Below, piece after piece: positions 8,937-12,815 of a stretch of DNA of 64,000 nt (position 1 is its first letter; every line of letters starts with the position of its first letter). The notes beneath the pieces are model-generated. The model saw only the letters and a program-made list of their open reading frames with translations, searched no databases and had not been told where the DNA came from. The stretch is from Anoxybacter fermentans (GTDB lineage Bacteria > Bacillota > Halanaerobiia > DY22613), in assembly GCF_003991135.1 (NCBI RefSeq), contig NZ_CP016379.1:2480001-2544000 (forward strand). Direction: 5' to 3'. Both the position numbers and the translations under genes were made by a program.

Positions 8937-9884
8937 TTATGCTATAAAAGATTCCATTTTCACAGAATTATTTTTAAATGCTTCATAAAACTTTACCGGA
9001 GGCATATTTCGGATACTTCCATGCCTTCTTCTTTCATTATAATACTTCATATAATTACTTACTATGTCATATACTTCCATAAAACTTTTAAACTCATTAC
9101 GACTATAACATTCTTCTTCCAATATTGAACGAAATGCCTCTATATGTGCATTCATATTCGGGGTTTTTACAGGAATTCTTTCATGTTCTATACCTAATTC
9201 CTTACATAAGCTATCAAATTCATGCGAAATAAACTGAGAACCATTATCTGTCCTTACTTTTGGCATGTCCATTCTTTTTACTATACACCTTTTTCTTAAT
9301 GCATTTTTTAAAACTCTACAAGCATCTTTTGCTTTACAAGATAATCCTAAATGATAATCTATTATTGAACGGTCGAAAACGTCTATTAGTGATAGTTGAA
9401 AGAAAGATTGATCAGTTCCATAAATATATCCATATTTTATATCCATTTCCCATAGTTGATTTGGTGAATGTATCTTTTCTCTTTTTGCTAACCGACGAGG
9501 ATACCTTTGTTTAATTTTCCTCTGTGGCCTTAAGATACTCAATTCTTTGCATAGCCTATAAACCTTTTTATGATTAATTTGAAGATCATAGTCTTTTTGA
9601 AGACATACTGTCAGTTTACGATATCCATAAGGAAACCCATCTCCAGCAACCAACTCACATAACCATTTCTTAATTTGCTCATCAGAAATTTTTACATCTT
9701 TCCTGGTAAAGGAGTAACCAGGAATTGGTCTTCCTGAAGGTTTTCTAATACCAGCCTATTCTTTTGGTTTTCTTGTTATGTTCTCATAATATGTAGATGA
9801 AGATAAGCCGACAAAGCCTAAAACCAGGCTGGTCTTATATCCAAGTTCTATCCATTTCTTTGCTATGGCGACTTTGTCGGCTAT
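8937..9884 (-). pseudogene. IS3 transposase orfB with in-frame stop
   Basis: DDE integrase-core transposase in the -1 frame relative to orfA. The catalytic triad is intact: Asp in WEMDIKYG, Asp in RTDNGSQF, Glu in AHIEAFRS. An amber codon (TAG, bases 9756-9758) follows KPKE about 40 codons into the frame. The decayed second copy at 56.7 kb has CAG (Gln) at this position, so this is a simple C-to-T nonsense change. An HTH_21-like region (residues around VAGDGFPYGYRKLT) precedes the catalytic core. A truncated product could still start inside the frame, but the full OrfAB fusion cannot be made without suppression. Confidence 0.85.
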
Positions 9885-10192
9885 TGAGGGTTTACTTTAT
9901 CTCTAAGGTCCCTAAGAATTGCCAGTTCTAATTCTTTCTCAGCGAGAAGTTTTTTCAGCATATCATTCTCAGTACTTACTTTTTCTAATCTTCTCAAAAC
10001 TTCTAAATACTGTTTTTCCTTGTCTCTTGGAAAAGATTCTGTAGAACCTTTTTGACGACTGGATTTAATCCAGCTATAAACAGTTTGCCTTGAAATTTCA
10101 TGGCGACGTGCAACTAATGCAATATTACCAACCAATCGACATTCTTCAATTATTTGCTGTTTGAATTCATCAGAATATTTTTTACGTTTCAT
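9881..10192 (-). CDS. IS3 transposase orfA (DNA-binding helix-turn-helix)
   Basis: Protein of 103 residues starting MKRKKYSDEFKQQII. It has the HTH motif VARRHEISRQTVYSWI followed by a leucine-rich coiled coil (residues about 55-95), the normal OrfA layout. GGGGG lies 8 bases before the ATG at 10192. It ends PQ-stop, with orfB entered by a -1 shift in the overlap, as is usual for IS3 elements. Because orfB has a nonsense codon, this OrfA is probably only a relic or a regulator. Confidence 0.85.
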   Translation of the reverse strand: MKRKKYSDEFKQQIIEECRLVGNIALVARRHEISRQTVYSWIKSSRQKGSTESFPRDKEKQYLEVLRRLEKVSTENDMLKKLLAEKELELAILRDLRDKVNPQ

Positions 10193-10274
10193 GAATAATA
10201 CCCCCTCTATCATTATTATATCATTTTCATACTTTATCTCCAAACCTATTAGGGGGCTATTATTAGGGGGCTAT

Positions 10275-10721
10275 ATAGTATACTACCAGACGGACAAACT
10301 TTACTAATGCCCAAAATCGAAGTAGACACATACTGGACAAGTCTACCCGATGAGCCGGAAGTTATTTATCGAACTTTATAAAAAACATGGCGCCAGCGAG
10401 CAATTTCATAGTGAGATAAAAACAGATTTAGATCTGGAAAGACTGCCGAGCGGCAAATTTGCTACCAACAATCTGATTTTACATCTTGGTGTACTGGCTT
10501 ATAACATATTGCGAATAATAGGCCAAATGATGGTTTGTTCTACGAAAACTCCTTTGCGTAAAAAAGCCCAACGCAGACCTATTAGAACAGTCATTCATAA
10601 TTTGATTTATTTAGCATGTCGTTTGGTTTACCATGCTCGGCAATATAAACTTTCATTTGGGCGTCATAGTCCATGGTTTTTAGTTTTTAAGGAGATTTAT
10701 CAAAAGCTATCTTACGTATGA
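10275..10721 (+). pseudogene. IS1380-family transposase, C-terminal remnant
   Basis: Only the last third of the gene remains. Bases from about 10275 read DGQTLLMPKIEVDTYW then TSLPDEPEVI. The frame then breaks near 10360-10370, and a second frame continues IELYKKHGASEQFHSE, then DLERLPSGKFATNN, which is the conserved end of IS1380-type DDE transposases. So it is both 5'-truncated (at the IS3 border) and frameshifted. The stop codon (TGA at 10719-10721) is made by the first bases of an adjoining fragment of the 220-bp repeat family. Not functional. Confidence 0.8.
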
Positions 10722-10790
10722 TTAAACTGCAAAAAGCTAATTTTGAGCACTATTGAAATTTTTAGTTAAACCATCTTAGTGAGATTTTAA
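10720..10790 (+). repeat. Fragment of the 220-bp inverted-repeat element (left end)
   Basis: Begins GATTAAACTGCAAAAAGC and continues with the GAGC..AGAAATTTTT.. CATCTTAGTGAGATTT pattern seen in the full copies at 29517, 35496 and elsewhere, then diverges. Only the left third survives. It provides the stop codon of the IS1380 remnant, so it probably inserted into that gene's end. Confidence 0.75.
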
Positions 10791-11006
10791 CAAGCAGATA
10801 AAGTTAGAAATTGACTTTTTATGGATCTTTTATAGATTTCGGAAAAAGGTAGTATTTTATTGTCTTTTTTGAGACTAATAAAATAGTAATATATGTTTAT
10901 TAATAATCAAATTACTTTATTGCTATATTTTGTCTTATAGACCTTCATGATGCTTTTCGCATCACCAGCTGAACTATGAAAACTATACTTTGCCCAACAA
11001 TTGTTA

Positions 11007-11012
11007 TATAAT
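11007..11012 (+). promoter_or_regulatory. -10 element for the candidate bridge RNA
   Basis: Perfect TATAAT whose expected start point (about 7 bases downstream) coincides with G11020, the first base of the closing stem of the RNA described next. A matching -35 box is poor (TATACT at 10984). Confidence 0.5.
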
Positions 11013-11019
11013 ATAAATC

Positions 11020-11173
11020 GAAGTTAGAGATAGAGACCGGGTCTAACTGGTACTGTGAGTCCGACTCATAGACGGGTCCGACAACTTACATGTATCACTG
11101 ATTGTCGCTTCCTTTTTTAAGGAAAGCACGCATAATAGATTGTTTTTATAAATTAAGTTGTCACTCTAACTTC
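11020..11173 (+). ncRNA. Candidate IS110 bridge RNA
   Basis: A 154-base segment closed by a perfect 10-bp stem, GAAGTTAGAG (11020-11029) with CTCTAACTTC (11164-11173). Inside, one arm pairs GACC/GGTC (11035-11038 with 11075-11078), GTCTA/TAGAC (11041-11045 with 11069-11073) and TGAGT/ACTCA around a CCG loop, leaving a 10-base one-sided loop. A second arm pairs CGACAA/TTGTCG (11079-11084 with 11102-11107) around a 17-base loop. A third hairpin (CTTCCTT/AAGGAAAG) follows. Known: bridge RNAs of IS110 elements lie in the non-coding end next to the recombinase and have internal loops that pair with target and donor DNA. Which loop does which is not resolved here. Confidence 0.65.
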
Positions 11174-11211
11174 ATTTTTTTTCTTTAATTTTCTTCCGGA
11201 AGGTGATGCAT

Positions 11212-12435
11212 ATGCAAATACTTCATGAAAGATGTTGTGGTCTTGATGTCCACAAAAAAAGTATCACTGCCTGCATCATTACTCCTGAAGGCAAAAAGAT
11301 TAGAACTTTCGGCACCATGACGGCTGATATTTTAGAACTTGTAGACTGGATTAAGCAAAATAAATGCAGCTGTGTGGCAATGGAAAGTACAGGCGTTTAT
11401 TGGAAACCCATCTACAATCTTTTGGAAGTTGAACAGATTGAAACACTTGTTGTAAATGCCAGACATATCAAGGCGGTTCCAGGGCGAAAGACTGATGTTA
11501 AAGATGCTGAATGGATTGCTGAACTTTTGCAATATGGCTTATTAAAAGGCAGCTATATCCCCAGCCGTGAACAAAGAGAACTTCAAGAATTAATTCGCTA
11601 TCGTCGCAGTTTGATTGATGAACGTTCCAGAGAGGTTAACCGGCTTCAAAAAATTTTAGAAGGTGCTAATATCAAACTTTCTTCTGTCGCTACTGATATT
11701 TTGGGCAAATCTGGACGTAAAATGCTTGAACAAATTATCAATAGTGATAAGCCCGATCCAAAAATTATTGCGCAATCAGCAAAAGGTAAACTACGAAATA
11801 AAATACCTCTTTTAGAAAAAGCATTACATGGACTTATTGGACATCATCAAAAAATGATTTTATCTGTCCAACTGAGGCATATTGACTTTTTAGATCAACA
11901 AATTGAAGAGCTTAATCTTGAAATAGAAAGACGCATGCGCCCTTTTGAAGATTGCCTGGAGCTTTTAGATACTATCCCAGGAGTTGGAAGACGCATTGCT
12001 GAACAAATTATTGCAGAAATCGGTGTAGATATGAGTAGATTCCCTTCATCCAAGCATCTGGCATCATGGGCCGGGATAGCTCCAGGCAACAATGAAAGTG
12101 CCGGAAAGCGAAAATCCGGACGAACGACAAAAGGAAATAAGCACCTTCGATCAACATTAGTTGAAGCTGCCAGGTCTGCCTCTCGAACAAAAAATACTTA
12201 TCTTTCCGCCCAATACCGCAGACTTGCCGCCCGCCGCGGGTCTAATCGCGCCTGTATAGCTGTTGCCCACACAATTTTAACAATTGTTTATCACATTTTA
12301 AAGAAAAAACAGCCGTATCAAGAACTTGGTGCCGATTATTTTGAAAAAAGAAAGGAAAGTAAAATTGTAAATAACTTGATTCGTAAATTAGAAAGATTAG
12401 GCTATAGTATTAGCATTAAGAAAAAAAGTGCATAA
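11212..12435 (+). CDS. IS110-family RNA-guided recombinase (transposase)
   Basis: Protein of 407 residues with both IS110 domains. The N-terminal RuvC-like DEDD domain shows Asp12 in GLDVHKKS, Glu58 in AMESTGVYW, and Asp95 and Asp98 in GRKTDVKDAEW. The C-terminal Tnp domain shows LLDTIPGVG, SWAGIAPGNNESAGKRK with the presumed catalytic serine near 295, and a helical tail. A coiled coil lies between (about 130-240). ATG 11212 is chosen because GGAAGG lies 8 bases before it; GTG 11203 overlaps that site. No disruption is seen, so the element is likely still active. Confidence 0.93.
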   Translation: MQILHERCCGLDVHKKSITACIITPEGKKIRTFGTMTADILELVDWIKQNKCSCVAMESTGVYWKPIYNLLEVEQIETLVVNARHIKAVPGRKTDVKDAEWIAELLQYGLLKGSYIPSREQRELQELIRYRRSLIDERSREVNRLQKILEGANIKLSSVATDILGKSGRKMLEQIINSDKPDPKIIAQSAKGKLRNKIPLLEKALHGLIGHHQKMILSVQLRHIDFLDQQIEELNLEIERRMRPFEDCLELLDTIPGVGRRIAEQIIAEIGVDMSRFPSSKHLASWAGIAPGNNESAGKRKSGRTTKGNKHLRSTLVEAARSASRTKNTYLSAQYRRLAARRGSNRACIAVAHTILTIVYHILKKKQPYQELGADYFEKRKESKIVNNLIRKLERLGYSISIKKKSA

Positions 12436-12467
12436 AAAATTTTATATACAAATATAGACCTAGAGTT

Positions 12468-12514
12468 CTGTTAAATTTTGGAATAACAGAACTTAGGAGG
12501 GTTTTTTTTCTTTA
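12468..12514 (+). terminator. Hairpin with T-tract after the IS110 recombinase gene
   Basis: AGTTCTGTTA (about 12470) pairs with TAACAGAACT (about 12488), followed at a short distance by a run of eight T. It would end transcripts leaving the IS110 gene. The right border of the element is probably close by. Confidence 0.5.
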
Positions 12515-12516
12515 AA

Positions 12517-12815
12517 ATTGGTTTTCAGAATAGAATAGATAACTTAATATTGCAGCGTTAGCTATTACTGTTGCTACTACTATTTGAACAAGTTCTTCTA
12601 TACTGGCAAATTTCCATAAACTTTTATAAAATTTAAAGTAGTAAAACACAATTATTTTAATAGTAGTTATAGCCAAAATATTATCTAAGTACTTAGAAAA
12701 ATATTCAGAAGATAAAACCCCCTCAAACCTTAAGTAAAAAGCTAGATAGAAAGCTAAATTTATTAAAATTATGTCTATTATAATGAGATATATGGTTGTT
12801 ATTTTTTTGCATCAT
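12517..12815 (-). pseudogene. CapD/PglF-like dehydratase, N-terminal fragment
   Basis: About 98 codons on the minus strand read IIIDIILINLAFYLAF, LRFEGVL, then IEELVQIVVATVIA before running into the IS110 side. This matches the membrane N-terminus of the intact CapD at 26533-28398 in the same order (CDIVF.. LRFEGTL.. LHELVSIIQGV). The catalytic Rossmann domains are gone. The natural start appears frameshifted in a run of seven A bases near 12810. It lies at the promoter-distal end of the AT-rich glycan block and is probably that block's own capD, cut when the IS110 element arrived. Confidence 0.75.

What the first reader, a model, noticed from the sequence alone, without database searches (positions are those of the whole stretch)
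11020..11173. Closed-stem RNA with two internal loops upstream of an IS110 recombinase: a probable bridge RNA
Seen: a perfect 10-bp closing stem at the two ends (11020-11029 / 11164-11173), inner arms with a 10-base one-sided loop and a 17-base apical loop, a third hairpin, and a TATAAT box whose start point falls on the first base of the closing stem. Known: IS110 elements use a bridge RNA from the non-coding end next to the recombinase to choose target and donor DNA. Inferred: this is that RNA for an apparently intact element. The recombinase keeps its DEDD residues and the SAG serine motif, so the pair may be a usable, uncharacterised system.
Basis: partly seen in the sequence, partly recalled or inferred. 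Interest (0 to 1): 0.72.

Follow-up and report, generated by a model that had tools for sequence, protein, structure and literature searches.

The report
Bridge RNA of an IS110 element
The sequence is the guide ("bridge") RNA of an IS110-type jumping element, shown by matching changes in about 50 related elements; it is a known kind of RNA-guided recombination system, but its two target guides lie in the order reported for a different branch (IS1111).

Summary
Confirmed: 11020-11173 is the bridge RNA of an IS110-family element (about 10941-12533, core dinucleotide AG at both ends). A covariance model built from 48 homologous elements, without this one or its sister copies, finds exactly 11019-11174 (E 1.9e-23; next best in the window 3.7). 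In those homologues 26 of 30 pairs change on both sides. Across 52 elements the five RNA bases before the guide's AG equal the left flank of each insertion (4.56 of 5; z 18.8), and a second guide equals the element's own right end (z 11.3). The right-target guide lies 5' of the left-target guide (z 7.0; exact in a 40%-identical Rhodococcus relative). That is the published IS1111 order, although the RNA lies upstream of the recombinase as in IS110; the ends carry a concordantly changing 7-bp inverted repeat. The window copy is the only one of three with an intact gene, but its guides mismatch its own sites by one base each and its right-target guide does not match, so activity is unproven. New variant within a known kind; moderate interest.

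The parts
10941..12533 (+). IS110-family element as a circle would hold it (left end after the left core, through the right core); 1593 bp
   Evidence: Ends shared with two other copies in the genome (about 90% identical) and with three 165-bp mini-elements, with different flanks outside; same end motifs in 52 homologous elements
10934..10938 (+). left target flank CTTAT
   Evidence: outside the shared element; compared with the guide
10939..10940 (+). left core dinucleotide AG
10949..10963 (+). left-end hairpin GATGC-TTTTC-GCATC
   Evidence: position conserved in homologues as CCGC..GCGG-type hairpins
10977..10983 (+). left copy of the sub-terminal inverted repeat, TGAAAAC
   Evidence: pairs with GTTTTCA at 12521-12527; the seventh base is complementary in 36 of 37 non-redundant elements (T/A 27, C/G 8, A/T 1)
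11007..11012 (+). TATAAT, putative -10 box of the RNA
   Evidence: 21 of 52 elements have at least 5 of 6 matches upstream of the closing stem; shuffled mean 7.9, maximum 16
11019..11174 (+). bridge RNA (extent matched by the covariance model)
   Evidence: R1 built without this lineage: 95.7 bits, E 1.9e-23
11020..11029 (+). closing stem, 5' arm
11164..11173 (+). closing stem, 3' arm
11035..11078 (+). target-binding loop, closed by GACC (11035-11038) / GGUC (11075-11078)
   Evidence: sister copies have GGUC/GACC: two pairs changed on both sides between copies that are 90% identical
11041..11048 (+). right-target guide (RTG) GUCUAACU ending in the core complement CU
   Evidence: position set by the family test, z 7.0, 0 of 20000 permutations; in the window copy itself it does not match the right flank (0 of 6)
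11065..11071 (+). left-target guide (LTG) CUCAU + core AG
   Evidence: family match 4.56 of 5, z 18.8; own flank CTTAT, 4 of 5
11072..11073 (+). handshake-like dinucleotide AC
   Evidence: equals the first two bases of the element's left end in 43 of 52 elements, including the rare types AT, TG, CT, TC
11080..11162 (+). donor-binding loop, closed by GACAACUU/AAGUUGUC
   Evidence: helix 4: all 6 pairs with changes on both sides, 93% of cells paired
11107..11127 (+). stem-loop of the donor-binding loop
   Evidence: helix 5: 97.5% of cells paired
11131..11138 (+). left-donor guide (LDG) CAUAAU + core AG
   Evidence: family match 5.72 of 6, z 11.3; own right end CAGAAT, 5 of 6
11212..12435 (+). 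IS110 recombinase, 407 aa, DEDD (D12, E58, D95, D98) and catalytic-serine motif ESAG (S296)
   Evidence: PF01548 4.2e-38, PF02371 5.9e-27; NF033542 319 bits; IS621 8wt6 E 1.7e-17; residues invariant
12521..12527 (+). right copy of the sub-terminal inverted repeat, GTTTTCA
12522..12531 (+). left donor (element right end) TTTTCAGAAT
12532..12533 (+). right core dinucleotide AG

Best explanation
11020-11173 is the bridge RNA (seekRNA) of an IS110-family insertion sequence, transcribed ahead of the recombinase gene. A 10-bp closing stem holds two domains. In the target-binding loop, a 5' guide (RTG) pairs with the top strand right of the core and a 3' guide (LTG) pairs with the bottom strand left of it, both including the core AG. 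In the donor-binding loop, the 3' guide (LDG) pairs with the element's own right end. The DEDD recombinase uses this RNA to bring the circular element and the target together and exchange strands at AG. Shown here by computation: conserved RNA, structure, ends, core, LTG, LDG, RTG and their order. Inferred from the IS621 and ISEc21/IS1111 work: RNA-protein binding, circle formation, catalysis. Not found: the right-donor guide. Activity of this copy is unknown.
For: Model R1, built from 48 homologues without this lineage, hits 11019-11174 at E 1.9e-23 and only the three copies in the whole genome. 26 of 30 pairs have changes on both sides, 0 of 500 shuffles reach this, and sliding the partners destroys it. 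LTG versus left flank: 81-98% identity per position, z 8.6-10.8 each, and the best of 2240 placements. LDG versus right end z 11.3, RTG versus right flank z 7.0. Out-of-family test: in a Rhodococcus element with 39.7% identical recombinase, the model places the RNA upstream of the gene, and LTG+core+2 (ATATCAGTT) and RTG+core (AGAGTGA) match its flanks exactly. Recombinase aligns with IS621 and ISCro4, with DEDD and the serine kept.
Against: The window copy itself fits its own sites imperfectly: LTG 4 of 5, LDG 5 of 6, RTG 0 of 6 without a gap. No right-donor guide was found by covariation. The LDG test, unlike LTG and RTG, is partly confounded by common descent. No RNA-seq; the -10 box is only partly conserved.
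Confidence: 0.96

Rival explanations
1. A decaying element: the RNA is a genuine bridge RNA by descent, but this copy no longer transposes because its guides have drifted from its donor and target.
For: One mismatch each in LTG and LDG, none in sister copy c3; the three copies are 90.5-96.3% identical, so no recent burst; the two sisters have stop codons.
Against: The window gene is fully open with all catalytic residues; the closing stem is perfect, and the target-loop stem differs from the sisters by paired changes on both sides (G-C to A-U, U-A to C-G), which suggests continued selection; single guide mismatches are also seen in other family members.
Confidence: 0.45
2. A structured 5' leader that only regulates the recombinase mRNA (attenuator or translation control), not a guide.
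For: It lies 38 nt upstream of the gene on the same strand.
Against: The loop segments follow the genomic flank of each separate insertion (z 18.8) and the element ends (z 11.3), which a leader has no reason to do; no Rfam leader family matches.
Confidence: 0.02
3. Chance inverted repeat near a transposase.
For: Perfect 10-bp stems of this span are common in this A+T-rich window.
Against: Exact hit by an independently built model and covariation.
Confidence: 0.005

Closest known systems
IS621 bridge RNA and recombinase (IS110 group, Piv clade; PMC11208160, PMC11208158)
   Same: RNA upstream of the recombinase in the left end; [quoted passage not shown] guides include the core dinucleotide; a handshake dinucleotide 3' of the 3' guide; DEDD plus serine recombinase (E 1.7e-17).
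   Different: Core AG, not CT. Guide order is reversed: RTG then LTG here, LTG then RTG in IS621; LDG is on the 3' side here, 5' side in IS621. A closing stem wraps both loops here instead of a separate 5' stem-loop. Recombinase is 407 aa against about 328.
ISEc21 seekRNA (IS110 family; PMC11187229)
   Same: Upstream non-coding region; [quoted passage not shown]
   Different: In ISEc21 the top-strand match lies 3' of the bottom-strand match; here it lies 5'. ISEc21 transposases belong to a 345-385 aa group.
IS1111 elements ISEc11, ISPa11, ISKpn4, ISPst6 (PMC11187229; PMC11208160)
   Same: Top-strand match 5' of the bottom-strand match; a sub-terminal inverted repeat of 7 bp that changes concordantly at both ends.
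   Different: In IS1111 the RNA lies downstream of the gene and the transposase has 330-350 aa; here it lies upstream and the protein has 407 aa.
IS110 subgroup with 395-455 aa transposases, which includes IS110 itself (PMC11187229)
   Same: Protein length and upstream non-coding region; probably the subgroup this element belongs to (inference from length).
   Different: No guide order is given in the text of either paper for this subgroup. ISPpu10, ISAar29 and ISHne5 were drawn in Fig. 6d of PMC11208160, but figures are not held here, so their order could not be compared.

Membership tests
IS110-family element | DEDD RuvC-like domain plus Transposase_20 domain with catalytic serine | tested here: met
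   PF01548 and PF02371, NF033542 above its cut-off, D12/E58/D95/D98/S296 invariant
IS110-family element | Element ends defined, with a short core shared by target and donor and no longer target duplication | tested here: met
   AG at both junctions in three copies and 52 homologues; no empty site of the same locus was available
Bridge RNA | Structured RNA in the non-coding end, conserved by compensatory change | tested here: met
Bridge RNA | Target-binding loop whose guides follow the insertion site | tested here: met
   LTG z 18.8, RTG z 7.0 in the family; in the window copy LTG 4 of 5, RTG not matching
Bridge RNA | Donor-binding loop with left and right donor guides | tested here: inconclusive
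   Left donor guide met (z 11.3); right donor guide not identified
Bridge RNA | Binds the recombinase and is needed for recombination | not testable with these tools
   needs RNP purification or a recombination assay
IS110 group in the narrow sense (IS621, ISEc21) | RNA upstream of the recombinase gene | tested here: met
   same in homologues and in the Rhodococcus and Citrobacter relatives
IS110 group in the narrow sense (IS621, ISEc21) | Bottom-strand guide (LTG) 5' of top-strand guide (RTG) | tested here: not met
   RTG lies 5' of LTG
IS1111 group | Top-strand guide 5' of bottom-strand guide | tested here: met
IS1111 group | Sub-terminal inverted repeats of 7-17 bp | tested here: met
   TGAAAAY/RTTTTCA, concordant in 36 of 37; placed unevenly, about 36 nt and 4 nt from the core
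IS1111 group | RNA downstream of the gene, in the right end | tested here: not met
   RNA is upstream
IS1111 group | Recombinase groups with IS1111 in a protein tree | not tested

The most novel reading that the evidence does not exclude
This subfamily (long IS110 recombinases, found in Bacillota, Actinomycetota and probably Enterobacterales) is a third arrangement of bridge-RNA systems: RNA upstream as in IS110, but both loops with the guide order of IS1111, a concordant sub-terminal inverted repeat and a handshake guide in mirror position. This would mean that RNA location and guide order are separate traits, and that the two groups are not split by a single translocation of the RNA.
Probability: 0.4. 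Interest if true: 0.6.

Novelty: new variant of a known kind. Interest (0 to 1): 0.42.

Why it matters
Bridge RNAs are among the newest classes of programmable recombination guides, and the published texts tie guide order to the side on which the RNA lies (upstream in IS110, downstream in IS1111). This family breaks that tie and gives an aligned set of about 50 elements with known targets, donors, core and RNA, so the rules for reprogramming the guides of a Bacillota-type system can be read off and tested. The own genome also holds 165-bp mini-elements with the same donor ends, a natural test of whether a bridge RNA can move other DNA in trans.

Tried and rejected
Column-wise scan of guide against target on the first alignment missed part of the LTG and all of the RTG because a gap column split the guide; repeated with ungapped anchors. 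Reading 10934-10992 as a host repeat that the element targets was rejected: the motif occurs in the genome only at ends of this element family and its mini-elements, and copy c2 lacks it next to its body only because another element of about 1.7 kb sits just inside its left end. An alternative RTG on the 3' side of LTG (IS621 order) gave no signal. A right-donor guide was sought without success; the only clear link of the RNA to the left end is the handshake dinucleotide. A one-base bulge would let the window RTG pair with TAGA of its right flank, but with three related copies this cannot be tested. Rfam has no matching family. In the Citrobacter relative the R1 match is weak (E 0.0026) and the right junction was not found, so it is not used for guide order.

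Full report
What was claimed and what is in the sequence. The closing stem GAAGTTAGAG/CTCTAACTTC is at 11020-11029/11164-11173, TATAAT is at 11007-11012, and the gene downstream is an IS110 recombinase. A perfect 10-bp stem of that span is not rare in this A+T-rich window (55 such 10-mer matches, 10-23 in shuffles), so the stem alone proves nothing. The whole 154 nt folds better than shuffles (z -4.0). The case rests on relatives.

Element ends. The host genome (one contig, 3.56 Mb) has two further full copies, 90.5-90.8% identical to the window copy and 96.3% to each other; both have stop codons in the gene. Comparison of the flanks of the copies puts the left junction at ...GTCTTAT-AG-ACCTTCATGATGC (core 10939-10940) and the right junction at ...GTTTTCAGAAT-AG-AATAGATAAC (core 12532-12533). 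Copy c2 seemed to lack the left end; it is 1.7 kb away because another element has inserted just inside it, between two copies of TGAAC.

Relatives. A search of species genomes gave 505 confirmed relatives, of which 80 loci (57-72% identical) were fetched. Fifty-two non-redundant elements, window lineage included, have the same left end (AG-NNNNN-CATG, a hairpin, TGAAAAY), the same kind of RNA region, and where the contig allows the right end (RTTTTCANNNNAG). The sub-terminal inverted repeat TGAAAAY/RTTTTCA changes concordantly in 36 of 37.

RNA structure. On 48 homologues without the window lineage, the strongest covarying columns define a target-loop hairpin, the donor-loop stem, the donor stem-loop and parts of the closing stem. 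With the 30-pair structure so derived (plus the target-loop stem seen in the consensus fold), 89.4% of cells are paired, 26 pairs have changes on both sides, and none of 500 shuffles reaches any of the five measures; sliding the 3' partners by one base halves the pairing. The structure was derived on the same alignment, which favours it, but the covariance model then finds the unseen window RNA from first to last position at E 1.9e-23, with the next best match in 64 kb at 3.7, and in the whole genome only the three copies. Between the window and its sisters the target-loop stem changed from GGUC/GACC to GACC/GGUC, two pairs on both sides.

Guides. For each element the RNA bases before the AG of the target loop were compared with the bases before the AG of the left flank. 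The match is 81-98% at each of five positions, 4.56 of 5 on average against 1.72 when RNA and flank are dealt out anew (z 18.8, 0 of 20000), and shifting by one base abolishes it. In an unguided scan this is the best of 2240 placements. Flanks are host DNA at separate insertion points, so common descent of the elements does not explain this. The same comparison of the donor-loop guide with the element's right end gives 5.72 of 6 against 4.42 (z 11.3); descent contributes here. The right flank is matched in the complementary sense by bases that end in CU just before the target-loop hairpin: 3.03 of 6 against 1.77 (z 7.0, 0 of 20000), and this place is the best of 1568 in the unguided scan (z 4.8). 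The two bases after the LTG core equal the first two bases of the element's left end in 43 of 52, rare types included; this is the place and role of the handshake guide of IS621 (PMC11208158), in mirror image.

Out-of-family test. The model, built only from close relatives, places an RNA upstream of a Rhodococcus recombinase of 39.7% identity (E 2.6e-7) and a Citrobacter one of 30.9% (E 0.0026). In Rhodococcus the predicted LTG with core and handshake, ATATCAGTT, occurs once in the 196 nt upstream, at the expected left junction, and the predicted RTG with core, AGAGTGA, occurs once in the 200 nt downstream of the gene, directly after TTTTCGGGTC at the expected right junction (chance 0 and 7 in 10000). 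So the guide assignment and the order hold outside the set from which they were inferred.

What it works like and what it is. It is an IS110-family bridge-RNA system. Within that, the text of the primary papers gives LTG (bottom-strand match) 5' and RTG (top-strand match) 3' for IS621 and ISEc21, whose RNA is upstream, and the reverse for IS1111 elements, whose RNA is downstream (PMC11208160; PMC11187229). The present family has the RNA upstream and the reverse order, with the donor guide mirrored in the same way, and a 7-bp inverted repeat of the sort used to define IS1111. Whether this was already drawn for ISPpu10, ISAar29 or ISHne5 could not be checked, since figures are not held. Two further searches of the held literature found no paper on guide order in this subgroup.

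State of the window copy. The gene is open and keeps D12, E58, D95, D98 and S296. Its LTG (CUCAU) has one mismatch to its flank (CTTAT), its LDG (CAUAAU) one to its right end (CAGAAT), and its RTG does not match its right flank. Copy c3 has perfect LTG and LDG but a broken gene. Either the window copy is drifting, or one mismatch is tolerated as in other elements (for example L098, which shows the same LTG mismatch). No sign of recent movement of the full element was seen; the 165-bp mini-elements with the same ends are 98-99% identical to each other, which suggests more recent movement, possibly by this recombinase in trans (inference).

Noticed in passing
G000:C1:1686261-1686428, 2715559-2715725, 3229822-3229989 (L157, L156, L158): Three 165-bp mini-elements, 98-99% identical, with both ends of the IS110 element (AG-ACCCTCATGATGC..., sub-terminal repeat extended to about 15 bp, TTTTCAGAAT-AG) and no recombinase or bridge RNA: candidate non-autonomous IS110 derivatives moved in trans. 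Partial relatives at 1725169, 2678731 and 271479.
   Followed up: partly
G000:C1:1777058-1778798 (L042): Another mobile element of about 1.7 kb sits just inside the left end of IS110 copy c2, flanked by a TGAAC duplication and with ends GAGTATTTTGCG / CGCAAAAAGCTT.
   Followed up: no
window 8937-10243 and 10350-10721: An IS3-type two-frame transposase (9881-10243 and 8937-9653, minus strand) lies next to a fragment of a transposase-like reading frame (10350-10721): an IS-rich patch directly left of the IS110 element.
   Followed up: no
window 10717-10774; L048; L044: A repeat (CTGCAAAAAGCTAATTTTGAGC...CTTAGTGAGATTT) recurs at about 1724.9 kb and near 3195.5 kb of the genome, beside other element remnants.
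   Followed up: no
L065, L058 right ends; L105, L067 left flanks: Several homologous elements sit directly against the end of another copy (right end followed by a second left end, or inserted into TTTTCAGGGT-AG), so tandem insertion into the own donor end seems common in this family.
   Followed up: no
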